Below, one piece after another: positions 27,686 through 51,898 of a stretch of 64,000 nucleotides of DNA (the stretch's first letter is position 1; the number at the start of each line of letters is the position of its first letter). The notes below the pieces were generated by a model. That model was not told the origin of the DNA. It did not search any database and saw only the letters and a list, made by a program, of their open reading frames with translations. This DNA comes from Candidatus Proruminimicrobium quisquiliarum (GTDB lineage: Bacteria > Elusimicrobiota > Endomicrobiia > Endomicrobiales > Endomicrobiaceae), in the NCBI GenBank assembly GCA_018433245.1, contig JAHDRN010000005.1, positions 1 through 64,000 of the forward strand, read 5' to 3'. A program made the position numbers and the translations under genes.

Positions 27686-28933
27686 TTAACATAAAATACT
27701 GCAATCTTCACATGGATCAATATAATTTTCATCAATAATAGATTGTCTTATATTTTGAATAGCAAGTCCATTCCATGATTTTTCAATAGTTTCAAATTTT
27801 CCAAAATGTTTGAAATCAGAACGACAGTCGAAATATACATCGTTATGAATAGCAATAGAAATATTTTTCCATGGAATATTACACTTCACATACAACTTAT
27901 TATGAACAACACTAAAATCATTACATAGACTTTTTTGATTTTTTCTAACTACATTTAAATTTGGATCGGTAAAAATTTGAATATTATAGTTTTCTCTTTC
28001 TACAAGATCTATACATTCATTAATTTGATAAATTGCATGTTCCATTTCTTTTTCATTTGGCATATATTGAAATACCGATGTTAATTTTAGAAAATTCAAT
28101 GCTTCAAAATTGTATTTCAACGCAAAATCAAGAGCATTTTTGATTTGTTTATAATTATTGTTCATAACAACCATATTTAACAAAGTTCTTACTTGTTTAA
28201 AAGAATCTTTTTTCATTGATTGTTTAAGAATTTCAAGATTTTCTGTTAAAATATCAAAATTCCCGTTTATTCTGATTTTTTCATAAGTTTCTTTGTCAAA
28301 ACCGTCTACAGAAACTCCTATTGAAGCTCTCATATTCTCAAATATTGCCATATTTTTAAGCAAAGATAAACCGTTTGTCACAATACATAACTCAGTATCA
28401 TATTTTTTGGCACTTTCAATAATATCATTAATCTTGTCGTATAAAAAAACTTCTCCGCCGATACAAGTAAACCGTTCAAAATATTTCATATATTTTATAA
28501 TATCGGCTATTGTTTCATCCGAAATAAGATAATTTTCTTTGACAGATTCGCACATTATACATCTGAGATTGCATTTGCTTGTAAGAACAGCAAGCATTGA
28601 AGAAGGTTTTGACTTTAATATTGTTCTTTTTTTTAATATTTCAAAATTATTTAAAAGTGTATTTTTTACCCTGTCTTTATTGCTTTCCGTTATATATTCG
28701 TCTATATTGTCCAAAAAAGACAACATTTCCGTATCGTTAAAAAACTTGCCGATTTCTTCTATTGCTTTTGTATAATTTTTCATAAACACATATATTTTAG
28801 CTATTTCTTCACGAATCAATATTTTTATTTCAGTTTTTGATTCTTTTTTTAAAAATTCAGAAAGAAGATTAAGAGCTTGGTCATATTTTGCAGCTTTAAT
28901 AAATTGTTTCGACTTTTTTATTGTTGCATACAT
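27686..28933 (-). CDS. Radical SAM/SPASM-like protein, paralogue 1
   Basis: 415 residues from the ATG at 28933 (AGGAG upstream, matching the starts of the two paralogues). Residues 1-105 are helical with TPR-like character. The radical SAM cysteines are C121, C125, C128 (CNLRCIMC), followed by GGEVFL. The C-terminus has the PWKNISI...FDC...CEDC pattern of a short SPASM auxiliary-cluster domain. It should bind one or two Fe-S clusters and modify an unknown substrate. It is one of three tandem copies placed between candidate ceramide genes and rfbB. Confidence 0.85.
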   Translation of the reverse strand: MYATIKKSKQFIKAAKYDQALNLLSEFLKKESKTEIKILIREEIAKIYVFMKNYTKAIEEIGKFFNDTEMLSFLDNIDEYITESNKDRVKNTLLNNFEILKKRTILKSKPSSMLAVLTSKCNLRCIMCESVKENYLISDETIADIIKYMKYFERFTCIGGEVFLYDKINDIIESAKKYDTELCIVTNGLSLLKNMAIFENMRASIGVSVDGFDKETYEKIRINGNFDILTENLEILKQSMKKDSFKQVRTLLNMVVMNNNYKQIKNALDFALKYNFEALNFLKLTSVFQYMPNEKEMEHAIYQINECIDLVERENYNIQIFTDPNLNVVRKNQKSLCNDFSVVHNKLYVKCNIPWKNISIAIHNDVYFDCRSDFKHFGKFETIEKSWNGLAIQNIRQSIIDENYIDPCEDCSILC

Positions 28934-29012
28934 ATAAAAAAACTCCTGCAAAAAATATCATAATTACACATGCCATGCTTATGCAAATATACGGTTTCAA
29001 GTCTTTGTATTT

Positions 29013-30266
29013 TTAAACTAACTGACTGCACTTATTACACGGTTCAATATAAACACCGTCAATAACAGCCTGTCTTATTTTTTGAATAGCCAAACTGTTC
29101 CATGATTTTTCAACAGTCTCAAAATGTCCGATTTCTTTGCGATCAGAACAGCAGTCAAAAAATATATCATTGTTTATTGAAACAGATATATTTTTCCAAG
29201 GAACATCGCATTTAACTCCAAATGCACTACGGTTTATACTTTTGTTATTATATAAATTTTTTTGGTTTTTACGAACAACATTAAGATCAGGGTCAGTAAG
29301 AATCTTAATATTCAAATGTTCTTTTTCAATTATATCCATACACGCATTGATATTCTTTGCAGCTTCGTTACTTTCTGTCTGCGAAAGCCGGCTTGAATTC
29401 TGCGGTTCTCCATTCAATTTTAAAAATTTTAATACACAAAATCCGTTTTTAACAGCAAAATCAAAAGCTTGTCTTATCTGAAAGTAATTTTCTTTCATAA
29501 CTATCATATACAAAAAACTTTTAACTTCTTTGAATGATTCTTTTTGTAATGCTGTTTTTAAAGCCGCTACATTTTCAAGCAATACTTCAAATCTGCCATT
29601 TAGTCTTATTTTTTCATATGTGTTTTTATCAAAACCATCCACAGACACGCCTATTGAAGCCTTCATGTTTTCAAACATCGCAAGATTTTCTAAAAGAAGC
29701 AAACCATTTGTAGAAACACACATTTCAGTATCACTTTTTTTTGCTTGTTTAAGAAGATATGAAAATTCCGGGCATAAAAAAACTTCTCCGCCTAAACATG
29801 TTATTTTTTCAAAATACTTTATATTTGCGGCTATATCGCTTACAATATCTGCTGAAAGTGAAATATCGCTTTTATTTGTCCGACACATTATGCATCTTAA
29901 ATTACATTTGTTTGTAAGTTCGACAAGCATTGAAGACGGTTTTGATTTTAATATTGTTCTTTTTTTCAATATCTCAAAATTATTTAAAAGTGTATTTTTT
30001 ACCCTGTCTTTATTGCTTTCCGTTATATATTCGTCTATATTTTCCAAAAAAGACAACATTTCCGTATCATTAAAAAACACGTCTATTTCTTCTATTGCTT
30101 TCGTGTAATTTTTCATAAATACATGCATTTTAGCTATTTCTTCATAAATTGGGATTTTAGCTCCGGTTTTTGGTTCTTTTCCCAAAAAAACATATAAATT
30201 TCTTAAAGCTCCTTCCGCATCTCCGGCTTTTAAACTTTTTTTTGATTTTTCTATTGTTTTATACAT
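29013..30266 (-). CDS. Radical SAM/SPASM-like protein, paralogue 2
   Basis: 417 residues, same architecture as its neighbours: helical N-terminus, CNLRCIMC at 121-128, GGEVFL, and a C-terminal SPASM-like motif (FDCCSD...CNKC). The middle N-terminal stretch (about 44-116) is nearly identical in nucleotide sequence to paralogue 1, while the rest has diverged more. Its start lies six bases after the stop of a remnant of the upstream acyltransferase gene, in exactly the arrangement seen in front of paralogue 3. Confidence 0.85.
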   Translation of the reverse strand: MYKTIEKSKKSLKAGDAEGALRNLYVFLGKEPKTGAKIPIYEEIAKMHVFMKNYTKAIEEIDVFFNDTEMLSFLENIDEYITESNKDRVKNTLLNNFEILKKRTILKSKPSSMLVELTNKCNLRCIMCRTNKSDISLSADIVSDIAANIKYFEKITCLGGEVFLCPEFSYLLKQAKKSDTEMCVSTNGLLLLENLAMFENMKASIGVSVDGFDKNTYEKIRLNGRFEVLLENVAALKTALQKESFKEVKSFLYMIVMKENYFQIRQAFDFAVKNGFCVLKFLKLNGEPQNSSRLSQTESNEAAKNINACMDIIEKEHLNIKILTDPDLNVVRKNQKNLYNNKSINRSAFGVKCDVPWKNISVSINNDIFFDCCSDRKEIGHFETVEKSWNSLAIQKIRQAVIDGVYIEPCNKCSQLV

Positions 30267-30271
30267 AAATT

Positions 30272-30445
30272 TCAGATTCCCGCATTTGAATAAACGGCAT
30301 ATTTTTTGTACAGCCTGTCGGACATCATTTCCGCCGTTCTCTGCGTCATTATATTATCGTCTAGTATCCATGACAGTTCGCAGTTTTCATAGCCTGCGGA
30401 CACTGAATTTTTTAATGCTTCGCCCGTTACCAAAATTTTATATAT
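30272..30445 (-). pseudogene. Chimeric duplication scar: rfbB 5' end fused to acyltransferase 3' end
   Basis: A 57-codon open remnant. Its first ~9 codons match the start of rfbB (YKILVTG, with the ATG changed to ATA at 30445-30443). From codon 9 on it matches the last ~49 residues of the GNAT gene at 31728, differing at a few residues only (for example V to I, G to D, R to K), with the same ANAG-I-stop ending. Most changes are synonymous. It marks the junction of a tandem duplication. No start codon or ribosome site remains, so it is unlikely to be expressed as a protein. Confidence 0.85.
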
Positions 30446-30465
30446 ATTTTTTCTTTAAGAGATCA

Positions 30466-31722
30466 TTAATATAAAACGCTGCAGTCTTTACATATTTTAA
30501 CATAATTACCATAAATTATGGCCTTTCTTATTTTTTGAATAGCAAGACTATTCCATGATTTTTCAATTGTTTCAAATTTTTCAATATGTTTACAATCACA
30601 ACGGCAGTCAAAATACACATCATTCTTCATAGAGATGGAAAGATTCTTCCAAGGAATATTACATTTTACATATAACTCATTGCTGCCTGTGCTAGCATTA
30701 TTATATAACGTTTTCTGGTTTTTTTGACCAGCATTTAAATTCAAATCGTTTGTATCTGTAAAAATCTGAATATTGTATTTCTCTTTTTCTACAATATCCA
30801 TACATTGGCGAATTTGATCAATTGCATATTTAAGTTCTTTTGCATTCGGACTATATTCAAATGCCGAATTCAATCTTAAAAAATTTAATGCTTTGAAATT
30901 ATATTTTAATGCAAAATCAAAAGCCTTCATGACCTGTTTATAATTATTTTTCATAATAACCATACGCAATAAAGTCTTGATTTGTTTAAAAGATTCTTTT
31001 TGAGTAGACTGCTTAAGTATCTCAAGATTTTCATTTAAAACATCAAAATTACCTTTCATCCTGATTTTTTCATAAGTTTCCTTATCAAAACCGTCGACAG
31101 ATACACCTATTGATGCCTGCATATTTTCAAACATAGACATATTTTTACCAAGCAATAATCCATTTGTAGAAATACTCAGTTCCGTATCAAATTTTTTGGC
31201 ATTTTCAACTATAACATTAAATTTATCATACAGAAAAACTTCTCCGCCCAAACACGCTAAATATTCAAAATATTTCATATTTTTTATAATATCGTCTAAT
31301 GTTTCGTCTGAAATAGTATAGTTTTCTCTTATAGATTTGCACATTATGCATCTGAGATTACATTTATTTGTCAGCACTGCAAGCATTGAAGAAGGTTTTG
31401 ATTTTAATACAGTCTTTTTTTTTAATATTTCAAAATTATTTAATAATATGTTTTTGACTCTGTCTTTATTGTTTTCATTTATATATTTATCTATATTATC
31501 TAGAAAAACAGCTATTTTGGAATCATCAAAAAAATATCCGATTGCCTCAATTGCTTCTATATATTTTTTCTGCGAAACATATATTTTTGCTATATATATA
31601 TATATTCTTTCCTTCTCATTTGAATCTGATGTTTTTTTTAAAAGACTGTATAAACTACTTAAAGCAACATCCGGTCCACATGATTTTAAAAGTTGCTTTG
31701 ATTTTTCTATTGTTTTATACAT
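30466..31722 (-). CDS. Radical SAM/SPASM-like protein, paralogue 3
   Basis: 418 residues. Radical SAM cysteines at 121, 125 and 128, GGEVFL after them, and a C-terminal CNIPWKN...FDCRCD...CKDC SPASM-like region with one more Cys than the others. The central part resembles paralogue 1 more than 2 (NFLRLNSAFEYSPN against NFLKLTSVFQYMPN). Starts six bases after the stop of the acyltransferase gene, so it is co-transcribed with the candidate ceramide genes. Substrate unknown. Confidence 0.85.
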   Translation of the reverse strand: MYKTIEKSKQLLKSCGPDVALSSLYSLLKKTSDSNEKERIYIYIAKIYVSQKKYIEAIEAIGYFFDDSKIAVFLDNIDKYINENNKDRVKNILLNNFEILKKKTVLKSKPSSMLAVLTNKCNLRCIMCKSIRENYTISDETLDDIIKNMKYFEYLACLGGEVFLYDKFNVIVENAKKFDTELSISTNGLLLGKNMSMFENMQASIGVSVDGFDKETYEKIRMKGNFDVLNENLEILKQSTQKESFKQIKTLLRMVIMKNNYKQVMKAFDFALKYNFKALNFLRLNSAFEYSPNAKELKYAIDQIRQCMDIVEKEKYNIQIFTDTNDLNLNAGQKNQKTLYNNASTGSNELYVKCNIPWKNLSISMKNDVYFDCRCDCKHIEKFETIEKSWNSLAIQKIRKAIIYGNYVKICKDCSVLY

Positions 31723-31727
31723 AAATT

Positions 31728-32846
31728 TCAGATTCCCGCATTTGAGTAAACGGCATATCTTTTGTACAGTCTGCCTGACATCATTTCCGCCGTTCTCTGC
31801 GTCATTACATTGTCATCAAGTATCCATGAAAGTTCGCAGTTTTCATAGCCTGCGGATACTGAATTTTTTAACGCCTCTCCGGCCATATAAGCTTCTATTC
31901 CTTTATTTCTGTATTCTTTTTTTACGCCCATTATCATAAGCCTTAAATCTTTCACTTTATTTTTAAAATACAAAAATTTTAAAAAACCAAAAGGGAATAA
32001 CTTCCCGTTTAATTTTTTTAATATATAATTGTAATCCGGTATTGCTATAAGCATACCTGCCGGATTTTCACCGTCATATGCCATCATCACAATTTTTTCA
32101 TCAAGCAATCCGACAAGACTATCGGCTATGGTTTCAAATTCTTCGTTAGTCCATGGGACAAAGCCCCAATTTTTTTCCCATGCAGAATTGTAAATTTCCA
32201 TAACGTCAGCCAAATCTTTTTTATAATTCTTTTTAGAAAATGTTCTTATTGTTATTGTAGGATTTCTTTTTTTAACTATGTTTAACGCTTTGTTTAATCT
32301 TACCATTCTGTCATCAAGAGCAACGGGTATTTCATAAGCGTACAATTCTTTTATTTTTTTCAGCCCCGCCTGTTCTGCAAGATCAATATAATATTTATGA
32401 GTATACGGCATCATTATTCTTGCCGGGCTGTCAAAACCTTCATATAAAAAGCCTACTTCGTCATTTGTGGACGGATTCATAGGCCCCATCATTTTTTTTA
32501 TATTATTTTCCGCAAGAAAATTTTCAACGCAGGCAAAAAGCCGTTTTGCCGCTTCAACATTGTTTACACATTCAAAAAAACCGAAGAACCCGATTTCATT
32601 TTCCTGGAATTCAATATAATTATAGTCTATAATGCCGGCAATTCTGCCGACAATTTTTTTGTTATCGTCATATGCCAAAAAAAGAGCCCTTTTCGCATGC
32701 CGCCAAAAAGGGTTTTTATCCGATAATATATTTTTAACATCTCTGTCTAACTGCGGGATCCAATACGAATTGCCTTTATAAATTTCATAAGGACATTTTA
32801 TAAATTTATCTATTTTGTCATCTTTTATTTCTTTTATGGTAAACAT
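31728..32846 (-). CDS. GNAT-superfamily acyltransferase, YghO-like; candidate bacterial ceramide synthase
   Basis: 372 residues. Characteristic stretches are YWIPQLDRDV (about 28-37), NPFWRHAKRALF, GRIAGIIDYN, GFFGFFECVN, and GPMNPSTNDEVGFL, followed by an acyl-CoA-type GNAT fold near the C-terminus. I recognise this as the YghO-like family that includes the ceramide synthase bCerS described in Caulobacter. The key argument is context: it directly follows a serine-palmitoyltransferase-like gene (no gap) and an extended SDR. It would N-acylate the sphingoid base. Activity and acyl donor are inferred, not shown by sequence alone. Confidence 0.72.
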   Translation of the reverse strand: MFTIKEIKDDKIDKFIKCPYEIYKGNSYWIPQLDRDVKNILSDKNPFWRHAKRALFLAYDDNKKIVGRIAGIIDYNYIEFQENEIGFFGFFECVNNVEAAKRLFACVENFLAENNIKKMMGPMNPSTNDEVGFLYEGFDSPARIMMPYTHKYYIDLAEQAGLKKIKELYAYEIPVALDDRMVRLNKALNIVKKRNPTITIRTFSKKNYKKDLADVMEIYNSAWEKNWGFVPWTNEEFETIADSLVGLLDEKIVMMAYDGENPAGMLIAIPDYNYILKKLNGKLFPFGFLKFLYFKNKVKDLRLMIMGVKKEYRNKGIEAYMAGEALKNSVSAGYENCELSWILDDNVMTQRTAEMMSGRLYKRYAVYSNAGI

Positions 32847-34139
32847 CTATTTTGACCAAAGATTTTTAAACCAGTTTTTAGTGGCATCCGCAAAATCTTT
32901 TCTTGAAAATGCGAATTTCCATGATTTTTTAGCGGATGTCTTTGATTTTCTTGTATTGCCGCCCGGGATAAGGCCTACCTGCTTTGAAACTTTTTCAAAT
33001 TTATCAAGTATAAATTCAAGATGAGCATCCGTATGAGTAGCCATATAACTTGTTCTTATTATGGCCTGAGGAACTGCGGGACTTACTACGGGAGACGTAA
33101 AAACGCCTTCATCAAAAAGCATTCTGCACATCTGGAACGCTTTCATATCATCGCCGACTGTTATAGGTATTATAGGAGATTCCGAAGTACCGGTATCAAG
33201 TCCCATTGACTGGAAACCTTCTTTCATCTTTCTGGTATTTTTCCAAAGAGTTTCTCTGCGTTCCGGCTCCTGCTGTAAAATATCAAGAGCGACATCTATC
33301 GCTCCTACGCATGCAGGCGGAAGACTTGCGGTAAATATAAGTGATCTTGCCGTATGTTTTATATATTCTATTACTTCATTGCTGCTTGCGATGAACCCGC
33401 CGATTGAAGCAAGCGATTTTGAAGCTGTCGCCATGACTACGTCAACATCGCTTTGAAGCCCGAAATGCTCTCCGGTACCGGTTCCCCTTTCGCCTAAAAC
33501 TCCCAAAGAATGAGCTTCGTCTACAAAAATTCTGACGCCGTATCGCTTTGCGAGTTTTACTATCTCCGGAAGATTGGCAATGTCTCCTTCCATGCTGAAA
33601 ACTCCGTCAACCACTATTATTGCCGATGCGTCTTTATTTTTTATAAGCTGCCTTTCAAGATCAGCCATATCGTTATGCCTGAACCTTACCATTTCGCCCA
33701 AAGCCAAACGGCAGCCGTCTATTATTGAAGCATGATCAAGTTTATCGGTTATTACTATATCGTTTTTGCCTACAAGAGAAGATATTGCTCCTATGTTTGA
33801 ATGATGTCCCGTTGTAAACAAAATCGCAGTCTCTTTACCTACAAATTTTGCGAATTTTTTTTCAACTTTTTCATGTAAATCGTTAGTTCCGTTTAAAAAT
33901 CTTGAACCTGTGCATGAAGTGCCGTACTTCTTTGCGGCCTTAATTGAACCTTCTATAACCTTAGGGTGGTCTGCAAGACCAAGGTAATTATTTGAACATA
34001 CTACAACTATTTTTCTTCCGCCTATTATGACTTCCGGCCCCTGTGCGGATTCAACTTTTTTGAAATAAGGATATACCCCCTGCGCTTTGATATCCTTTGT
34101 CGCCGTAAATTCATAACACTTCTTAAAAATATCGTTCAT
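32847..34139 (-). CDS. spt: Serine palmitoyltransferase-like alpha-oxoamine synthase
   Basis: 430 residues, PLP-dependent. AQGVYPYF at 19-26, SRFLNGT (79-85), HASIIDG (136-142), RFRHND (152-157), DEAH (207-210), Lys241 in ASKSLASIGG as the PLP lysine, then IFTASLPP and VVSPAVPQ. The RFRHN, FTASLPP, SLASIGGF and MATHT wording is closer to Bacteroides/Sphingomonas SPT than to Kbl (which has YxNND) or BioF. It would condense serine and acyl-CoA to 3-ketosphinganine. A Lys/Trp-rich amphipathic tail of ~30 residues extends beyond the family's usual end and may bind the membrane. AGGAG precedes the ATG. Confidence 0.82.
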   Translation of the reverse strand: MNDIFKKCYEFTATKDIKAQGVYPYFKKVESAQGPEVIIGGRKIVVVCSNNYLGLADHPKVIEGSIKAAKKYGTSCTGSRFLNGTNDLHEKVEKKFAKFVGKETAILFTTGHHSNIGAISSLVGKNDIVITDKLDHASIIDGCRLALGEMVRFRHNDMADLERQLIKNKDASAIIVVDGVFSMEGDIANLPEIVKLAKRYGVRIFVDEAHSLGVLGERGTGTGEHFGLQSDVDVVMATASKSLASIGGFIASSNEVIEYIKHTARSLIFTASLPPACVGAIDVALDILQQEPERRETLWKNTRKMKEGFQSMGLDTGTSESPIIPITVGDDMKAFQMCRMLFDEGVFTSPVVSPAVPQAIIRTSYMATHTDAHLEFILDKFEKVSKQVGLIPGGNTRKSKTSAKKSWKFAFSRKDFADATKNWFKNLWSK

Positions 34140-34169
34140 TTAATCTAACTCCTAAAAGTTAATATATTC

Positions 34170-35144
34170 CTAAAACCATTTATTCTTTAAATACCAATTG
34201 TATGTTATTTTTGAACCGTTTTCAAGATTTTCAAATGTAAAATCAAGGTCTTTTAATGTTTGGGAATTATCGCAAACCCATGCTTTTTGAAGCATTTCGG
34301 TTATTTTCTGTCTGTTTAAAACCTGCGGTTTTTTTACAATAACAGATATAAATTCAAAAATACTGCCTGCAGCCTTAAAAATAAAATCAAATAGAGGAAC
34401 GGATACTGTTTTAATACCGTTTGAAACTGCTATTGTATCGGCGACATTTTGCCACGAATATATTTTGCCGTCCGCGAGATAATATATTTTATTATCCGAA
34501 ACAGGATTGTTTATTATTTTGATTGCTATTTTAGCTATATCTCTAACAAAAACAAGCTGTATAAGATGTTCTTTTACGGTTTTAGGAGCGATATGTTTAT
34601 TGACCATATTGAAAAATGAGAAAATATCTTTATCTCTGGGACCGTAAACAGCCGCCGGTCTTAAAATACAGTACGGCACTATTCCTTTGAGTTTTTTTAC
34701 CTCCTGTTCGGCCAGCAACTTACTTTTGCCGTAATCGGAAACAGGGGTTTCAATATCGCCGATTTTTCTTATTTTATCTTCAAAAGAAGGCCCCATTGCG
34801 GCCTGTGATGAAATAAAAATAAATTTTTTTAAATTTTTATTATTTTCCAAAACGGCTTCTATTATATTTTTCGTGCCTGTTACATTAACATCGTTGTAAG
34901 TATCCCATTTCAACGCCCTTACAACTCCGGCGCAGTGAATAACAATATCTGTTTCGGATATTATCTCTTTAAGAAAAGTTTTATCGTTTAAAGTTCCGTA
35001 TTTTAATTTTACAGGCCGGTTATTTATCCATTTAAGATCTGAATTCTTTCTGACAGCACAAATGACTTCATAGTTGTTTGCGGCAAGTTCCTCAACTATG
35101 TGGCTTCCTACAAAACCGTTGGCTCCGGTAATTAATATTTTCAT
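34170..35144 (-). CDS. Extended SDR (NAD-dependent epimerase/dehydratase); candidate CerR-type reductase
   Basis: 324 residues. N-terminal Rossmann GANGFVGSH at 7-15, a Ser at FISSQAA near 112, and the catalytic YGKSK near 138. C-terminal half is the variable substrate domain. In Caulobacter the keto-reduction step of ceramide synthesis is done by CerR, an SDR annotated as an epimerase/dehydratase. This gene sits directly before spt and the acyltransferase, so the same role is inferred here. It starts 16 bases after the tRNA-Met 3' end without a ribosome site. A sugar epimerase remains possible. Confidence 0.7.
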   Translation of the reverse strand: MKILITGANGFVGSHIVEELAANNYEVICAVRKNSDLKWINNRPVKLKYGTLNDKTFLKEIISETDIVIHCAGVVRALKWDTYNDVNVTGTKNIIEAVLENNKNLKKFIFISSQAAMGPSFEDKIRKIGDIETPVSDYGKSKLLAEQEVKKLKGIVPYCILRPAAVYGPRDKDIFSFFNMVNKHIAPKTVKEHLIQLVFVRDIAKIAIKIINNPVSDNKIYYLADGKIYSWQNVADTIAVSNGIKTVSVPLFDFIFKAAGSIFEFISVIVKKPQVLNRQKITEMLQKAWVCDNSQTLKDLDFTFENLENGSKITYNWYLKNKWF

Positions 35145-35160
35145 TTTTTAAAATAAAAAA

Positions 35161-35232
<72 letters not shown>

Positions 35233-35281
35233 AAACTTGTATAATTTTATTTTTTTTCACAACGAAAATCAATATTTAATA

Positions 35282-35363
35282 TGCGGATAGAGGGACTTGA
35301 ACCCCCACATCTTTCGATATACGGTCCTAAGCCGTACGCGTCTGCCAATTCCGCCATATCCGC
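35282..35363 (-). tRNA. tRNA-Leu (TAG)
   Basis: 82 bases, no encoded CCA. Acceptor GCGGATA pairs with TATCCGC, there is a long variable arm, and the anticodon loop CTTAGGA lies between ACGG and CCGT. It precedes tRNA-Met in the same transcript. Confidence 0.94.
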
Positions 35364-35378
35364 AAAAACGGAATTGGT

Positions 35379-37459: not shown

Positions 37460-40400
37460 TTATGCCGACATTAACATTGTTTTGATATGTTTAATATCAA
37501 TATCGCCGCCTGCGGGAATTATACGTTCTTCGTCATCAATATAAGGGAACGGAAGTATTCCCATTTCCATTTCGCCTATTTTTGCGGTTACGGACAAATA
37601 TCCGTTGAATTTATCTCTGACAACCGAATCGGTATTTATTCTGTCAATTATCATTGAAAGAATAACGGCGGAATCTATCTTGCCGTCATATTTTGAATCT
37701 ATGCAGAAAACTGAAATATTACCGTCTGTTTTTTTGAGATAAACATGTATGGCTTCGTCTTGCTGAAGAGGATTTGCCATATTAAATAAGATTTCGCTTC
37801 CTGCCGGCATATCTTCAAATGATATCGCCGCCATTTGCTTGACTTCCTTTTCTTCAATAGCCGGAGTTATATCCGGTTTTGCCTGTACAGCGTCTTCAAG
37901 CGTAGTAATCGGTCTTCTCTGCAATATATAAATTTCACCATCTTTTATTCCGTATTCTATATCTACCGGATAGCCCGCATCCTTTTCAAGAACATTTACT
38001 ATATCCATTAATGTTTTTACAGTTTCTGCCGATAAAACTCTGTCTTTTGCACCTTCCGTTACGACTTCCTGGCTTGTTCCGTTGGCCGTAGCCACTATTT
38101 TTGAATATTTGTCTGCAACCGAATATTCAATAATCTCTCCGCTTGTAGTTTCAACTTCAACCGTATCCGGAGTAATTATGCCCGATACTATTCCTTCTCC
38201 GAGACCATAGACTCCTTCAATAATAGTATTGCCGTATTTATTTCTGCTGAATATAACTCCGGCTTTATCCACGTTTATCATTTCCTGTATTAAAACCGCA
38301 GGTTTAACAATCTGTCCGGTTTTTATCATATATTCAATACATCTGTCGGAATAAAAAGATTTCCAGCATTCCTGAATATTTTCAAAGACATCCGCGTAGG
38401 AGACGTTTAATTTTGTTTCTCCCATTCCGGCAAAAGCTTTATTTTCACTGTCTTCGCCGACTCCGGAAGACCTGACCGAATATCTTGCCCCTTGCCGTAA
38501 AGCCGATTTCATTTTACCTTCTATTACTTTTTGCATAAAAGTCTGTTTTTTATCTTTTGAACCATCTATAAGTTTTTGTATTTTTTTTGCAACCTGTTTT
38601 GCAGCCGTCTCATTTTTTGTTTTTACGGCAAGTTCAAAATCCGCGGTTAATTGTCTGTATTCTTCATTTTGTCCGGTCTCGCTGAAAAACATATAAAGAA
38701 CATTGGCACTTATACCTACTCCCGCCGGAACTTTTACTCCTTTTATTTTTGACAAAAGCCTGTAAATCAAGGCAAGTTCCGTAGTTTTGGAACCGAATCT
38801 GTAAGCGTCTCCGGCCGATATTTCGCTAAAACCGCATATTTCGGAATCTATGCTTATTTTCTTATTGGACTGATACTCCGTTACTATGTTTTCCAAAACC
38901 AAAACAAGATTCTTAATTTCGCTTCTTTTTTCCGCCAAGTCTTCTCTCTTTTCGCTTTCGGGAATAAAGTAACGGTATACGGATATCTGATGAAGCAGTT
39001 TGACAATATTTTCTATATCCGAAGCATTCAATTTCTTTTTTGAAGCAAGAGTTTTACCGGTTTCTATAATATCGGTAACATATTCCAGAAGACCGTCTTT
39101 TATTTTTTCCTGAGCCGATGCGACATCTTTTTTTAAAGCATTTATATCTTCTCTGTTTTCAATAGTTTTTATGTAATTAAGTTTATCGTTTAATCCCGTT
39201 ATAATCCCGTAACTTATATTTATATTGTCTATATTCTCCAAATTTTTAAGAGATTCGGATATATTTCTTACTTTGTTTTTGACGTAAACGACATTAAGTT
39301 CTTTTACTTTTTGCCTTACGGCTTCCGGCAATGAACTGTCAAATAAAACAAACATTATTTCTTCAAGTTCTTTATCGCCTATTGTCTGGAAATAAATATA
39401 TTCAACAAGTTTTCTTATGTTTTCGTTATCTTTATTTTCACCGAAGAATGTTTTTATTGCTTTGATATCCTTCGTTTCTATATACCTCTGCAATTGGTCA
39501 AGAAGACGCGGGGCAATGTCGTTAAACAAAAGAATCCGGCCCGTTTCTCCGTTGACAAGAACTTTTGTTCCTTCCTTAAGCATAACCGTATTTTCTTTTA
39601 CTTTTCTGACATTAAATCCTTTTATTTCTTCCGCCGCTTCTTCATAAGTGTAGTACTTTACCTCAACGCTTCCGTCATTCCATGAAGCGCCGTTAAGCAC
39701 AACCGAAGGTTTTTTTAATTCTCTGGTTGTTATCGCAGCGTGGCTAAGAGTACCGCCGCCGGTCGTTATAACCGCTTTTACCGATTCTATCGCCTTTACG
39801 TCATCCGGAACAGTGAATTTAACAAGCAGAATATCTCCTGAACCGGCGTTCTTTCTGTCAAAAGTAATATTACCGGCCACGTAAGTTCCTTTACCGTCGG
39901 ACGTTCCCGTGCACAAAACTTCAGGGCTGTCGGTATTTTGAATCTGGGCAGACAAGAAACTTTTTATTCTTTCTCTTTCTTTTGTCCCTATCAATTCCTG
40001 TTCTGATGAAATTTTATATCCTTCTCCGTTCAGCACCGCAGTAAGTTTGGCTTCCGTAAGTTTCTCGCGTCCGGCTGCGGATATAATTTCCGTCTGAGCG
40101 TATTTCAATCTTCTTGTGTAAGGATTCATCAGCCCCCTGACGGATAAAGTTTCTCCGTTAGATAATTTAACGTTGCCGGTAACAAACATCAGATTGCCTA
40201 TAAAACCTATTGTTTTAAAACTGAATTTTGATCTGCTTATGAGATTTATAATTCTGCTCTGTTTTAACGCATCGTATTCATCTTCCAAAATGGCATTAAC
40301 AAGCTGTTCTATAATATCATAATTAACATTCTTTACAAGATATCCGTTTTCATCAAAAGAGATACGCCCTTCACCATAAGCCTGTTCTATTGGTTTATTA

Positions 40401-43400
40401 AAATATTTATCAATGAAACTTTGGTCAAATTCATAATATCTTCTTGATCCGTCGTATGCTTTTTCAATACCGAGATACTCAAAAACTTCGTCAAATATTT
40501 GTTTTGCCGACGAAAAACTCGGTTTAGGAAATCTTTCCGTCATTGTATTGTCTCTGAATGCCGTTCTTCCGTTGGACACATAAGAGTATCCGTACCATAT
40601 TTCTCCCGCCATAAATTTATCTACAAGTTTAGCCAATGTTTCCAGATAAGAACCTTCCGAATATCTGTCGGCCAATTCTTCAAGTTCCATATCAAGATTA
40701 GTCGAATGTTTATACAATAAAACCGCTCTGGCAGCTATTTCCGCGATATCTGTTTCCTCATTTAATCCGAAATCTTTATTCAATACGGCCTTCAGTCCGC
40801 ATGTTCCGGGTTTTTTATCTGAAAAATCTTCTTCCGTATCGGAAACGACATCAAATCCGAGCCTTGTCAAAACTTGGCTGAAATAACGTACTCTCTCCGC
40901 ATACCCGGATTTTCTTCCGTTTTCATTGTAATAAATAGAAATCCCTCTGTCTTTTTCTCCGAAATTTATAAAAATATCAACGCTGTGAGCAAATAATCTT
41001 GTCGTCCATACAAGAATGTCGTCTCTAAAAACAAAATCGTCAATGCTTACCCTGTCTGATGCCAGTCTTGTAAGAAAACTTTGTATATCTCTGTTCATTT
41101 TTCCGGAATCGGACAAATCATACGCTAAAATTGAAGTATTATCGCGTATAAATCTTGACGTGCGAATATCTCCTTTATCCATACCGCTTATACTTTTAAC
41201 TTTTTGTTTAAAATCAAGAATGCTCGTTTGATGTATGGCGTTTATCAAAGTGTGAATCTCTTCAATAGAGGATATAGAATCTTCATTCCATTTGGAAAGA
41301 GCAGCCTGTTTTTTTATCGTACCCGGGTCAATATCCCCGTTAGGAATTGAACTCAGTATTTTTTCAAGAGCCGCTTCGGCGGCAGCGCCGTGTTCTGAAT
41401 TAATTTTTTTCAATATCTGTATCATTCTGGCTACAATTTCAACGGTTTTATCAAAATCTTTTCTTGCAGAACGGTCATTTAATTTTTTCATCCTTTCAAG
41501 CACGATTACGTTATATTTGAGAATGTCCTGCAAACTGTCAAAATCTTCGGTCATTGCCGCAACTTCTTTATTTTTTTTATTTACACGGCCTCTGTTTTCC
41601 ATGAAAACAGGAGATTTGGATTTGAGTTTCTCTTTTGCAATGAGAGATTTCGGAAGTCTGGATACCAGCGGAGTAAAATCAAAATTTTCCGCATACGATT
41701 CGCCGTATCCCGTTCGTCCGTAAATATTTTCAAAGTATACGGTTGATTCCTGTAATAAAGCATCAATATTTAAATCGGCGTATATCTTGTTGATTTTTGC
41801 TATATTTAAAACTTTATCGTCGTTAAATTCCTGATACGATAATGAGGCGGTACGGCCCAATGTAATCGCGGCAGTTTTACGCGTTTCAATATCGGCATCA
41901 GGATTTTCGGCAATTTCAAATAAGTTTTTTATTAAAGCCAAAGCTATTTTCTCGCCGTTAACACCCGATAAATAAAGTCTCAAACATAATTTTTCAAATA
42001 TAAGGTTATTTATAGATTTAAGTATTAATTCCGTCATTTTTTTTGAATAAACGATTTTTTCGTCATTCGGCAGATAAGGAACTGCCGATTTGCCCGATTT
42101 ATTTAATGCTTCTATAAACACAGCAAAAGTCTGTTCATTAAACCCGAGTTCATCAAACAAATATCTGTAAACTCCAATATTATCCGGAACATTTTCGGCA
42201 AGTTTTCTGAAAATATTTAATATCTCATTTTCTGTTTTTATATATTCTTGGCTGTTTTTATCATATTTTTTTACGGAATTATGCATCATAACAGCCATCT
42301 TGCATATATATTCGCAAACTCTGTCATTTGTTCTTGCGCCGTCTTTAAAATTCGACGCTTTTGCGACAAATAATAAATATGACATAACAGTATTAAAAGC
42401 GTCTGTCATATTTTTAGAATACAATTTATTGGACAACAAGGATAATTCTCTGAGAGTTTTTTCGTTAACCATTTTTGTTTTTAAAACTATTTGTTCGCAA
42501 ACCGGCATAACGGCTTTGATAATTTCTGCCGATTCATCTGTTTCTCCGGATTCTGCAAGCCTGTCCGTTAAAGCGATTAATTCCTGTATCTGGCTGTCGG
42601 CTATTTGGGCGGTTGAAGGATTTATAACGTCGTACAATGAATTTAAATTTCTAACTGCCGATTCTTTTTTATTATTTAATTCTTCATCCTGCAGTTTGAT
42701 ATCTTTTAACATCTCAATTGTTTTCAGAAGTCCTTTAAGCATATCACGGTCAACGCCCGGACTTGCAAACGATAAATAATAATCTCTCAAATCATTATAT
42801 TCTTTTATAATATCTCTGAGTCCCCATGGCATTTCTTTGTTATCTATAAAATTGAGTTCATATAATACTTTTGTTATTTCAAGCGCATTTTTTTTGTCTG
42901 TTGAATATGCAACTTCAAATATCTTTATCGCGGCAGATCTCAAATTTGAATATTGGTTATTTGCCCACATATCCGAATATAACGGTGCGCTTGCGCTTAT
43001 TTTTTCTTTTTCAATTTTTAACATATCGGCAAATTCAGACACCAATAATCTGCCGGTTTGAGGATTTCTTACAACGGTGGCCAAAGGTACAAGCTGTAAA
43101 AAATAAGAATCTTTAGGACCGCCAAATATCGCTTGTAATTTTATTAACTGTTCAAAAATAATATTATTCTTTTCTTGCGCCGGAGTTTCAGGCGTAATTT
43201 TTGATAAAATGTCAATAATTTCTGAAATATCATTTTGAAATCTGTATACCTTTATATTTTTCAAATAATTTATCAAATCAAGAATTATTGCCGTATCAAA
43301 ATCAGGGAAATTTTCAGGGTCTTTCAATAAAGAATCAGGCGCAAAGTTATCTTCAAAAATACGGTTAATTAAAGCCGTAACCTTAATTTTAAGTTCGTAA

Positions 43401-46400
43401 CCGGCGTATGGATCGGGCAATTCCTCGGAAACAAGGCTTGGAGCAAGTTCCTCAAATGTTATAATTTTTTCTTCAGAAACTCCCATTTTTATCAATGCGG
43501 TCTTATGTCTTTTTCCGGCAGCTATGAAATAATCCGATTTTAAATGTTCAAGGGTAAGATTGGAAGACCTGAAACTTTTTATAATATCATCCGGAACTCC
43601 GTATTTTTCTAATTCGGCGACATATTCCGGTTTTAAAGACGCACCCAAATGAGACGAGTCCGTGTATGTTCCGGCCGATATGGCTTTTATATTAGTTTTA
43701 CCGTTTTTTATCATCAATGATTTGAACAACATTTCCGCAACGGGACTGCGGTCCGTATTTCCGCTGCATACAAAGCATATAGTTTTTGAATTATTTTCAA
43801 GAATATCTTTTTTAAGGCGTTTTATCTTTTCAACGGCGCGAGTTCTTTCTTGTTCGCCGTCTTTTAAAATTTCGGCGGCAGGTTTTTTTATTTTGCCCTC
43901 AAGAGCAAATTTATTGTATACGGCGTGCGTCACCGTAGCGACAATCAAAGCGGCAAAATTAATCCAAAAAAACGGAAGTATTGAAGATAAACAAACATAT
44001 ACTAAAACATAAAATCCCGTAAACAAAACGGAAGGGACAACAAAGCTTTTCCAGTCTCTTATTTGAGTCTGCGGTGATTTTTTAGCCGTGATTTTATCTG
44101 CAAGCGTGTGTGCGTATGAAAACGCAAATACTGACACCGCAGCGGTTATTGCAATCGGAACTGCGGACAAAGGATTTGCCGCTATAATACCCAAAGCAAA
44201 GAAAGGAATAAATCTGAATATCAGCTCCTCAATCGCAGGTACGGCAAAAACCGTTATATTTCTGTAAAGTTTATCACTTTTGATTTTTATCTTTCTTAAA
44301 AATGAATCAGCAACTGACTGAACCGTTAAAACAGCTTCTTCAAGCTCACGTTTTGCTTCGGATTCGTTTATTTTACCGTTAAAAGCCGTATCAGCCCTTC
44401 TCTGAAGTATAAATATATTGTCTTTTGAATCAATTGCAAATTCAACGTCAATCGGATAACCGACTTCCTGTCTCAAAGCATATACAATATCAACCATTTT
44501 CCTTATATTGCTTTCATCCGTTATTCTGTTAATTTTTTCTTTATTTTCAAGTTTTTCAATCTGAATGCCGCCGTGAGGCAGAGCTATTATTTTCTTCTTA
44601 TTCTGCAACGCCCTTCTGTATTCTATTCTGCCGTCTCTGTGAAATACCTTAATTCTGTCAGGATCTATTTTTCCGCTTGCAAGTCCCTCGCCTACTCCGC
44701 GCACTATTTCCATATTGAAATCGCCGTTGGCGTCAGAACTGAATATTACTCCGGCGCTTTTAATATTTTCAACAAATTCCTGAACAAGAACCGCAGGCTT
44801 CACAAATTGTCCGCTTTTGAGCATATATTTAATTGTTTCCTGTTCAAAAAATGATTCCCATACCTCTTTAATATCGGCGTATATATTTTCTTTGTCGCGG
44901 TTTAATTTAGTCTTAGCCATTCCGGCAAACGAATAGTTTGCTCCGTCTTCTCCTATCCCCGAAGACCTGACAGCATATCTTTTTCCGTATTTCAGTTTAC
45001 CGAGATTATCAATATATCCTTTTAATTTTGGGCTGTGCGAATCTTTTATCATTTGAGAAATGATGCCGGCTATTTCTGCGGCTCTTTCAAATTTTGACAT
45101 GTCTTTAGTTTTTATTATGCCGCTTAACTCGGACATCAGAGTTTTAAATTCGTCCAATCTGCCGGCATCTTTAAAAAATATATCCAAAACACCGCTGCTT
45201 ATTCCAAGACCGGCAAGTATTCCGAAATTCCTTCCTGAATTGTTTATCTTGGCAAGTTCAGTTGTTTTTGAACCGAACTTAAATTTATCGTCAGATCCTA
45301 TTTCATCAAAACTCTTTATTTCTTCACTAAGTTCCAAATTCTCCGATACGGCGGAAAAATTATTGCGTATTTTTTCGTCAAGAGCATCCGTTAATTCTTT
45401 TATTCCTTTGTATCCGTAAAAATATTTCCAATACTTTGCCATTTCAACAAGTTTAACGGCAATATCCATATCTCTGCCGGTCAAGCCGCTTTTTTTAAGC
45501 AGTTTATCCGCCGTGTTTTTGAACCCTTCTATATACCGGACGTATTCGGCAAGTATTTCTCTCTTTTTGCCGGCAATTTTGACTTTCAGCTCTTTAACTG
45601 CCGGATTCGCTTTTCTTAAAACTATACTATTGATTTGTTTTTCGGTCGATTTAATCAGCACATACGCTTCTTTAATATCTTCCGTATTTCCGGCGTTGTC
45701 AAACATATTCTGTATCTCTTTAACTTTATTGAGCACATACACAATATTTAATTCGTCTATCTTTTCTCCTATTTTATCGTCATATTCCCATGCGACAAGC
45801 ATACGGAGAATTTCTTTCAATTTCTGGGTTCCCGCAGACTGATAATAAACATATTCTACAAGCTTTCCTATGTTAGGGTCTGATTCGTTGGCTTTTAAAT
45901 AATTTTTTACTCCCTGCACGTCGGAAGCATCTATCATCTTCTGCAATGCATCAAGCCGGCTTTTATTTATTTCATTAAATAAAAGCATTTCTCCTGTTTC
46001 CGGATTTATCAGAACAACGTCTCCCGCTTTTATTCTTACGGTATGTTCTACTGTTTCCCTTATGAAAAATCCGCCTTCGTTGACTACATCTCCCTTATAG
46101 GTGTAGTATCTTAACTCTATTTCATTGTCAGACCATTTACTCTGCAATAAAACAGCAGGTTTATTTTTTTCTCTGGCAACAATGCTGGCATGGCTGTAAA
46201 TTCCGCCGCTTGTAATACAGAATCCGGCAGGGATATCCATTTTTTCAACGCTTTCTTTCATAATCTGCTGCGCTATCCATATACTGTCATGTTTAAGATT
46301 ATTTTCATCATATTCAACTTTTCCGATTACGCTTCCGCCCGTTCCGACAGATAGCCCAATCGCTTTAGCCGTAGGAGTTTCTTTCATAAACGGAGGCTGT

Positions 46401-49400
46401 TCATGAAGAGTGTTTATCGTTTTCTTTTTTTCGGAACCGCTCCTTTCGGCCTGTCTTTCAACTTCGTATCCGTTTTCCTGAAGAATTTGAAGAAGTTCAT
46501 CGTAGTTTAACTCTGTTCTGTTTCCGTATACATCTACATATTCCACAAATGCGCACTGCATTCTCTCTCTTTCAGCGTCAACAACTGCTTTTACGGAAAG
46601 CCAGCCTTCGTACAATTTTATCACTCCGGATTTGGCTATCATACCGCCTATATAACCTTCCGTTCTAAAATTGATTTTTGAATAATCCAAAAGATTTAGA
46701 AGCTGCGCCTGTTTGAAAGACTCATCTCTCTCCCATTCATTTCCGTTTATTATGTCAACTATTTTGGAGGTCGGTCTGTATTTTGCATTAATCTCCAGAA
46801 AACCCGTCTCAGGATTTTTTATTATTTTTCCTTCCACATACATTCTTTCAACATTTTCAATATTTCTGTCGATTCCTTTAAGACCGAAATAATCGTATAC
46901 GGCATTGAATATATCTTTTCCGGTCTTATCTTCTTCATAATAAGAATCATTTAAATCCAGCCCCGTTTGCATTGTTTGTTTCTGTTTTTCATAATCTCTG
47001 ATTACGCTTTCGGGAATCCGGCGGCTGTTTTTTAATACTCTGAAATCTTCAAGCGTCAACTGCGGAATAGCAAATTGATGGTAAAAATTCTTGTCATTAT
47101 CATATTCAAGACCCTGCAGACGAAAATCCAAATCTTTCGTGTCTTCTACTATAGAAAATGCTCTTTTAAAATATTCGGCGTAGAATTCTCCCTTTCTCAG
47201 CGATTCTGAATTCCCGCTTGCCCAAACTGCTTTAAATTCACATAATCCGAGCAATGATTCATTATAATCGGAAACTCTATTGTCAAAACTGGTTATGTCA
47301 AAACCAGCTGTCGCAAATGCTAATGAAAGCATCGTTGTTCTCATAGCGTTGCCGTCGCTTCTGCCGGAATCATAAAATGCGCAAACTATGCTGTCTTCAG
47401 TATTGTCAAAATCCACAAATATTGAAACACTGTGCGCTCCGAGCTTTTTATTGTATAGTATTTTTCCGTCACTTATATAAAGAATCCCGCTTTGTTTTGA
47501 CTCTGCGAGCTTTGCCAGAAAATCCTTTACTTCCGTACGCATTTCTTTTTTAGAAAAATCATATACTTTAAGATAATTTGTAGCAGGATTTACAATAACT
47601 TCCTTTGCACTGTCTTTTTTTATTTCATCGTCTATAAGACTCATAAAAACAGATATTGAAGTCTGATGTACCGCATTAATAAGAGTATGCACAGTATCTA
47701 TTTCTTCAATTTTACCGGCAGTCCATAATTTAAGTTTGTTCTGCAACGTTACATTTTCAGAAGCAAGTCCTCTCTTCATTCGTTCCTTTATTTTATCAAG
47801 AGATTTCTGTGAATCTTCGCCGTATTTATTATATTGAGTATCAAATTTTTTCAAGCCGTCTATCATTCTCTGCAAAAATAAAATTGAATCCAAAAGAGAA
47901 TCTTCATTTCCCCTGTTAAGTTCTGATAATGCAAGGATGTTGTTTTCAAGAATAGCATTAAAAATTTCAAATTTATTTTCGGACTGAACATCGCGGACGG
48001 GAGCTTGTATTTCATGTTTTTTTGTTCTGAAATAAGTTGCCGGAGCTGAAAAACTTTTTATTTTTTCGGTCACGGTGTCCGGAAGCATATTTTGTAACAT
48101 TCTCAAATAATCAGACTTATAAAAAACTCTGTCGTATATAGATATTTTTTCGTTTATTTCCTCATAGGGGATTCCTATAGCATCATAAAACAACTCAAGT
48201 CCCGCATAAGTTTTTATTACATCCGACCAACCGTACGGTATTCTTGAATAAGCCTTATCCCTTCTCATCTCATCGCTGAAAAGTTTTATATTTATTAAAC
48301 GTTTTTCCTGCATTTGTTTCAGCAAAGATAATCCTAATTCGCGATTTATTAAAAAAATACGCGACGATATTTTCAGAAGAAAATCTGTTTTGTTGATTGA
48401 AACAAGAGAACTAGAACTGTATGATTCTTTTTTATCCGCAAGGCAGATTTCAAATATGTAATTAAAGACTGTCAGGGCGAGAGATTCATCTTTAGATGTA
48501 TTTTTTACTAACAAAATAACCGGAATCAAAGCATTAAATATATTTACGTCTGCGTCATGTTTCATAAATTCATTTATAAGATAGTTAACCTGCTCGTCAA
48601 TAATTTTGTATTTTTCTTCAGCCGGGAGTTTTGAGGCGTTTTTTAAAACCGCCACGGTTTTTTCTACAAGACCTTTAATATTTTCATTTTGTTTATAAAA
48701 AGATGTTGTTTGAATGTACTGCAATCTTGAAATTACGTCGTTTAAAGAAAAATTAAAATCAGAAGCATTCCCGTTTTTGACAAAATAATCTGTTTCATTC
48801 TCAGTCAAAACAGGTTCGTCTTTCTCTGTTATAATAATTCCCATACCGTCTTGCGAAATGGCAGTATAAAAGAATTTTGCAAGCTCAAAGCCCGTAATGC
48901 TTCTTAAGGTCGGAAGGTCATTTCTGAAAAAACCTGCTTTGTATGCTTCTCTCAAAACAAATGCCGCTCTTTCAGGATGTCCTGCATATAAACTGTCTGT
49001 CAAATTAAGCAGTCTTATACTATCGGAAACTATAAACATCTTTTTTTGTATTAAGGCATAATCTATTATTTTATCAAACAGAAGGTTTCCGCTCTCGTCT
49101 TTGACATATAGAGAATCCATATAAAATATATTCATTACTGATTTCGCCAAAAGCATCGGACCGCTGAATTCCTCTCCGTTCCCTTTTTCCGCACATGCAA
49201 CCATTATGTCATAGAGATAATTCATTTGTTTGGAATACAAATCATATTTTTCGGCATCCGAAAGTTCATAAGCATTTGACAAATCAGCTCTCATCTTTTT
49301 AATCTGCTCCGTCATGCTTAGTTCGGAACCTTCCATCTTTGGACCATAATTTCTCATCGCATAATCCTGATTTTTGATTATAGAATCCAGATTATCTATA

Positions 49401-51883: not shown

Positions 51884-51898
51884 TTCAACTCCCAAAGA

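What the first reader, a model, noticed from the sequence alone, without database searches (positions are those of the whole stretch)
31728..35144. Candidate bacterial ceramide (sphingolipid) operon
Three contiguous genes encode an SPT-like enzyme (Lys241, RFRHN, IFTASLPP), a YghO/GNAT-family acyltransferase of the type reported as bacterial ceramide synthase, and an extended SDR like CerR. The set matches the three-step pathway defined in Caulobacter: serine plus acyl-CoA, N-acylation, keto-reduction. Sphingolipids are not, as far as I know, a described trait of this lineage. Motifs are seen directly; the pathway is inferred from family and adjacency.
Basis: partly seen in the sequence, partly recalled or inferred. 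Interest (0 to 1): 0.8.

Follow-up and report, generated by a model that had tools for sequence, protein, structure and literature searches.

The report
Ceramide-making gene trio in Elusimicrobiota
Three adjacent genes in a gut-type Elusimicrobiota bacterium (family Endomicrobiaceae) are very probably a complete bacterial ceramide pathway, a known kind of gene cluster shared with many other phyla but apparently not reported for this group, and the cultured relative Endomicrobium proavitum carries the same trio, so it can be tested.

Summary
Three intact, same-strand, tightly spaced genes (SDR 35144-34170, SPT-like 34139-32847, GNAT 32846-31728) are present. In a maximum-likelihood tree the synthase falls in the SPT clade (support 100/99) with the solved Sphingobacterium SPT, outside BioF, Kbl and ALAS. 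The GNAT is collinear with E. coli YghO and the Sphingomonas N-acyltransferase (30-33% identity; tandem-GNAT model, pLDDT 92.7). The SDR's best matches include SDRs of other SPT/YghO clusters. The same trio, often in the same order, occurs in many other phyla, so the kind is known. The lineage is Elusimicrobiota, family Endomicrobiaceae. I found no paper describing sphingolipids there; a 67-MAG study of the family does not mention them. The isolate Endomicrobium proavitum (genome identified by its length) carries the whole trio. Two unusual points: the SPT has a basic C-terminal tail ending in a predicted helix, nearly confined to Elusimicrobiota in my sample; and two endosymbiont-type genomes have lost SPT but keep intact acyltransferase and reductase genes with low dN/dS, which hints at salvage. 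No lipid has been measured; serine specificity and step order are inferred.

The parts
34170..35144 (-). Extended SDR, probable ceramide (3-ketoceramide) reductase of the CerR type, 324 aa; TGANGFVG nucleotide-binding loop, Ser112, Tyr138-xxx-Lys142
   Evidence: Pfam Epimerase; HpnA only 102 of the 368 bits required; best relatives include SDRs of other SPT/YghO clusters; motifs invariant in alignment A3
32847..34139 (-). Serine palmitoyltransferase-like alpha-oxoamine synthase, 430 aa
   Evidence: SPT clade 100/99; best PDB match Sphingobacterium SPT, 415 bits against at most 309 for BioF/Kbl-type enzymes; the only alpha-oxoamine synthase in the genome
33417..33419 (-). Lys241, the PLP lysine
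   Evidence: invariant column K241 in A2 and A5
32850..32963 (-). C-terminal basic tail of the SPT (residues 393-430): low-confidence linker, then predicted helix 413-429 with ATKxWxKNLW motif
31728..32846 (-). YghO-family tandem-GNAT N-acyltransferase, probable bacterial ceramide synthase (bCerS), 372 aa
   Evidence: 30-33% identity over full length to E. coli YghO and Sphingomonas homologue; AlphaFold2 model pLDDT 92.7, tandem-GNAT fold
35160..35233 (-). tRNA-Met ending 15 nt upstream of the SDR start (with tRNA-Leu 35281-35364 before it); context, possible shared transcript

Best explanation
The three genes are an operon for the ceramide backbone of sphingolipids. The SPT-like enzyme condenses an amino acid, most likely L-serine, with a long-chain acyl thioester to give 3-ketosphinganine. 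The YghO/bCerS enzyme N-acylates it with a second acyl thioester to give ketoceramide, and the CerR-type SDR reduces the keto group with NAD(P)H to give dihydroceramide. Shown here: gene integrity, family membership, SPT-clade placement, conserved catalytic motifs, and linkage kept over a class and in other phyla. Inferred: substrates, step order (taken from Caulobacter), and that the lipid is made. Because the genome has a single recognisable ACP and the operon has no AcpR/AasR, the acyl donor is probably acyl-CoA or the housekeeping acyl-ACP. Head groups are unknown. The basic tail on the SPT may hold it at the membrane (speculative).
For: Tree 100/99 for the SPT clade, with BioF, Kbl, ALAS and sampled Elusimicrobiota paralogues outside. 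PDB and HMM ranking favour SPT. GNAT full-length homology to YghO, which PMC9386255 lists as orthologue of Caulobacter CC_1154. SDR top hits lie in SPT/YghO clusters of Aureispira, Rubrobacter, Klebsiella and Rahnella, plus Bacteroidota. SDR-SPT-GNAT order kept in Endomicrobiia; trio in Rubrobacter and Streptomyces; collinear in 22 of 80 named loci. Purifying selection among SPT-bearing relatives: dN/dS 0.04-0.10 (SPT), 0.07-0.16 (GNAT), 0.13-0.18 (SDR).
Against: No lipid data. The SPT scores below the curated cut-off of every NCBIfam SPT model (536 of 640 bits for the best). Amino-acid specificity cannot be read from the tree: alanine and perhaps other amino acids are proposed for related enzymes (PMC11334938). 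Caulobacter enzymes were not compared directly. The Caulobacter pathway also needs AcpR and AasR, which are absent here.
Confidence: 0.87

Rival explanations
1. The operon makes a related but non-canonical lipid: the synthase uses alanine, glycine, lysine or cysteate, giving 1-deoxyceramides, amino-acid ceramides or sulfonolipids rather than serine-derived ceramide.
For: SPT-like enzymes with other amino acids are proposed for anaerobic Black Sea bacteria (PMC11334938); a cysteate-C-fatty acyltransferase of the same superfamily is solved (28eh).
Against: The window protein matches the solved Sphingobacterium SPT far better (415 bits) than the cysteate enzyme (254 bits) and lies in the SPT clade. 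No cysteate synthase was seen in the immediate gene neighbourhood.
Confidence: 0.12
2. The synthase is BioF (biotin) or Kbl (threonine breakdown), and its neighbours have unrelated jobs.
For: Same superfamily; it is the only such gene in this genome.
Against: The tree places it outside BioF and Kbl with 100/99 support; other Elusimicrobiota carry separate BioF- and Kbl-type paralogues that do group there. Linkage to GNAT and SDR is conserved.
Confidence: 0.01
3. The SDR is a sugar or hopanoid-type epimerase that is a neighbour by chance, and ketone reduction is done by another enzyme.
For: Broad SDR family; other Elusimicrobiota classes keep SPT-GNAT without an SDR alongside.
Against: Close relatives include cluster SDRs of distant phyla; the HpnA model scores 102 of 368 bits; two f12 genomes have an unlinked SDR at 41% identity; the SDR keeps its place through the class.
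Confidence: 0.08

Closest known systems
SPT-YghO-SDR triplets of Rubrobacter radiotolerans, Streptomyces and other phyla (annotated as aminotransferase / hypothetical or GNAT / oxidoreductase)
   Same: Same three families, adjacent
   Different: Gene order differs in these two (SPT-GNAT-SDR); identities about 43/39/30% (Rubrobacter)
Caulobacter crescentus ceramide genes spt, cerR, cerS with acpR, aasR (PMC9386255, PMC11324152)
   Same: Same three enzyme families and the same predicted reactions
   Different: Here all three lie in one operon; no dedicated ACP or acyl-ACP synthetase; SPT nearer the Bacteroidota/delta type than the Rhodobacteria type
Sphingobacterium multivorum SPT (PDB 3a2b, 8guh)
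   Same: Same clade, PLP lysine and active-site motifs
   Different: The window SPT has a C-terminal tail of about 38 residues that Sphingobacterium SPT lacks
Black Sea 'Spt-like' clade B (PMC11334938)
   Same: Spt-like genes, many with bCerS and CerR nearby, in 38 phyla
   Different: Marine MAGs; whether Elusimicrobiota are among the phyla could not be read

Membership tests
Serine palmitoyltransferase (SPT clade of alpha-oxoamine synthases) | Groups with proven SPTs and apart from BioF, Kbl, ALAS | tested here: met
   30-row clade, support 100/99
Serine palmitoyltransferase (SPT clade of alpha-oxoamine synthases) | PLP lysine and catalytic His/Asp/Arg columns | tested here: met
   K241, H136, D207, H210, R362 invariant
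Serine palmitoyltransferase (SPT clade of alpha-oxoamine synthases) | Condenses L-serine with a long-chain acyl thioester | not testable with these tools
   needs an enzyme assay
NCBIfam NF047600 SPT equivalog (Bacteroidota model) | Score above curated cut-off of 640 bits | tested here: not met
   536 bits, though the best of all models; so not filed under this narrow model
Bacterial ceramide synthase bCerS / YghO family | Full-length homology to YghO-type N-acyltransferase with shared invariant motifs | tested here: met
   A1: 23 invariant columns, 33% to E. coli YghO and 30% to Sphingomonas
Bacterial ceramide synthase bCerS / YghO family | GNAT fold | tested here: met
   Model pLDDT 92.7; top PDB matches are tandem GNATs
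Bacterial ceramide synthase bCerS / YghO family | Direct comparison with Caulobacter CC_1154 | not tested
   Sequence not reached in the collections queried; published orthologue YghO used instead
CerR ceramide reductase | Extended SDR with TGxxGFxG and YxxxK, related to SDRs of SPT clusters | tested here: met
CerR ceramide reductase | Reduces 3-ketoceramide | not testable with these tools
   needs an enzyme assay
Rhodobacterial five-gene ceramide system | Dedicated AcpR and AasR with spt | tested here: not met
   None in the operon; one ACP match in the whole genome; seven AMP-binding matches, none on this contig

The most novel reading that the evidence does not exclude
Some flagellate endosymbionts (Endomicrobiellum type) have lost their own SPT but keep bCerS and CerR to build ceramides from sphingoid bases taken from their eukaryotic host: a bacterial sphingolipid salvage pathway.
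Probability: 0.2. Interest if true: 0.65.

Novelty: new member of a known kind. Interest (0 to 1): 0.42.

Why it matters
It extends a complete ceramide operon to a class of gut bacteria and flagellate endosymbionts for which sphingolipids seem undescribed, and one isolate (Endomicrobium proavitum) makes the claim testable with ordinary lipid analysis. The stepwise decay in endosymbionts, with SPT lost before the other two genes, offers a natural test of whether bacteria can salvage host sphingoid bases, a question left open in PMC11324152.

Tried and rejected
I first took the lineage for Omnitrophota; named relatives corrected this to Elusimicrobiota. I first read the SPT remnants of G001 and G017 as one shared deletion (residues about 20 to 185); G121, sister to G017, still has traces of residues 91-182, so that deletion is not shared. 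I first equated the Bacteroides SDR relative with BT_0972; the paper describes BT_0972 as a different SDR of about 31 kDa chosen by likeness to the yeast enzyme, so I dropped that. The core paper on bacterial ceramide synthesis, PMC8891067, is not held.

Full report
OBSERVATION. The first gap is 30 nt; the GNAT ATG follows the SPT stop directly; a tRNA-Met ends 15 nt before the SDR start. The quoted motifs (Lys241, RFRHN, IFTASLPP) are present.

LINEAGE. Named relatives of the GNAT place the window's family with Candidatus Endomicrobiellum devescovinae and Endomicrobiales bacteria, phylum Elusimicrobiota; genome G062 contig 10 and record JAIRYK010000010.1 have the same length, 135,766. Genome G023, same family, is a single contig of 1,588,979 bp, exactly the published length of Endomicrobium proavitum Rsa215, an isolate (PMC4505116). 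It carries SDR, SPT and GNAT in the window's order (G023:C1, about 399156-402503). Genome G034 (single contig, 1,643,562 bp) is probably Elusimicrobium minutum; that rests on my memory of its size. It has SPT and GNAT side by side.

THE SYNTHASE. The best NCBIfam model is the Bacteroidota SPT (536 bits; curated cut-off 640, so below the narrow model), ahead of BioF/Kbl-family models (418 or less). The best solved structures are Sphingobacterium SPT (415 bits), then a BioF/Kbl-type enzyme (309) and Sphingomonas-type SPT (about 277-287). A 49-row maximum-likelihood tree puts it in a 30-row clade (100/99) that holds the Sphingobacterium SPT, both Rhodobacteria-type SPTs and the SPT-like proteins linked to YghO-type genes; BioF, Kbl and ALAS lie outside, and so do the 14 sampled further alpha-oxoamine synthases of Elusimicrobiota, of which 13 group with BioF or Kbl. 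It is the only alpha-oxoamine synthase found in its own genome; the second hit is at 28% identity over half the protein. Within the phylum the SPTs do not form one group: starred branches force at least three changes of the label, so transfers between phyla are likely.

THE ACYLTRANSFERASE. Pfam sees only a weak GNAT domain and NCBIfam nothing, but it aligns over its whole length with E. coli YghO (33%) and the Sphingomonas parapaucimobilis protein (30%), with 23 invariant columns. PMC9386255 lists YghO as the orthologue of Caulobacter CC_1154, the ceramide acyltransferase. The E. coli and Sphingomonas loci used here also show the ACP, SDR and SPT genes of the known clusters. The AlphaFold2 model (pLDDT 92.7) is a tandem GNAT; besides general tandem GNATs the matches include a histidine acetyltransferase solved with N-myristoyl histidine (9emp) and N-myristoyltransferase (8fi4).

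THE REDUCTASE. An extended SDR with TGANGFVG and Tyr-xxx-Lys. Among 419 plasmid records its top full-length matches are SDRs of Bacteroidota and SDRs located in SPT/YghO clusters (Aureispira, Rubrobacter, Klebsiella, Rahnella; E. coli a little lower). It is not HpnA (102 of 368 bits).

DISTRIBUTION. In Elusimicrobiota the GNAT occurs in 217 of 294 genomes (54 of 90 genera). SDR-SPT-GNAT is the rule in the window's class; other classes keep SPT-GNAT without the SDR alongside, and two of those genomes have an unlinked SDR at 41% identity. Of 80 named loci from many phyla, 52 have SPT within reach, 50 of them directly upstream on the same strand; 36 have all three genes, 22 in the window's order. 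So the kind of cluster is known and widespread; what is new is the lineage.

KNOWN OR NOT. Full-text searches for Elusimicrobiota or Endomicrobium with sphingolipid terms gave only co-mentions in gut and diet studies, judged by titles and abstracts of the listed papers. The main comparative paper on Endomicrobiaceae (67 MAGs, PMC11257099) contains none of 'sphingo', 'ceramide', 'lipid' or 'palmitoyl' as word beginnings in its main text. PMC11334938 reports Spt-like genes in 38 phyla of the Black Sea; Elusimicrobiota is not named in its text, but the full list is in a figure and supplement that I could not read. The key Caulobacter paper is not held.

UNUSUAL POINT 1, A TAIL ON THE SPT. The window SPT ends in about 38 extra, basic residues: a low-confidence linker (394-412) and a predicted helix (413-429, pLDDT about 58) with the pattern ATKxWxKNLW. 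Similar tails occur in many Endomicrobiia outside the Endomicrobium/Endomicrobiellum group and in family f12, with related ends in L116 (unnamed bacterium) and L125 (Elusimicrobia bacterium). They are absent in Endomicrobiellum, Endomicrobium proavitum, families f13 and f16, and the other named SPTs examined. A membrane anchor is the simplest guess; it is untested.

UNUSUAL POINT 2, DECAY IN ENDOSYMBIONTS. Of 41 genomes in the Endomicrobiellum-type genus, most have SPT and GNAT. Three that form a clade in the GNAT tree (100/99) have lost SPT. G001 and G017 (both 99% complete) keep open SDR and GNAT genes with SPT remnants between them; in G121 the SDR and GNAT are broken too. G017 and G121 share a stop and the 3' loss, so that break is older than their split; whether the break in G001 is the same event is not settled. 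Between G001 and G017, dN/dS is 0.17 for GNAT (SPT-bearing pairs 0.07-0.16) and 0.15 for SDR (SPT-bearing pairs 0.13-0.18). This fits continued function without SPT, such as salvage of host sphingoid bases. It also fits losses too recent for the other two genes to have decayed, and G121 shows that decay can follow. I give salvage about 0.2.

VERDICT. A real, ordinary-in-kind ceramide operon in a lineage where it seems undescribed. Steps and substrates are inferred; nothing has been measured.

Noticed in passing
window 27686-31722, minus strand: Three tandem paralogous radical SAM genes (421, 417, 418 aa) follow the GNAT directly, sharing a near-identical N-terminal block (LLNNFEILKK..KSKPSSML); function unknown.
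   Followed up: partly
window 37460-51895, minus strand: Giant 4811-aa ORF with duplicated PPDK_N and PEP-utiliser domains, a LMW phosphatase-like and a CAAX-protease-like domain.
   Followed up: partly
L050:8376-9088, L055:9895-10137, L231:3221-3647: SPT pseudogene remnants between SDR and GNAT in Endomicrobiellum-type genomes G001, G017, G121; SDR and GNAT intact in the first two, broken in the third.
   Followed up: yes
window 32850-32963: Basic C-terminal tail on the SPT with predicted terminal helix, nearly confined to Elusimicrobiota in the sample.
   Followed up: partly
L069-L085 (families f13, f16): In other Elusimicrobiota classes the SPT-GNAT pair mostly follows a biotin carboxylase gene, a biotin-carrier-like gene and an RfaE2-like nucleotidyltransferase (names from reading the sequences), a different and possibly lipid-related context.
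   Followed up: no
window 35160-35364: tRNA-Leu and tRNA-Met lie immediately upstream of the SDR, with only 15 nt to its start codon, which suggests read-through from a tRNA promoter.
   Followed up: no
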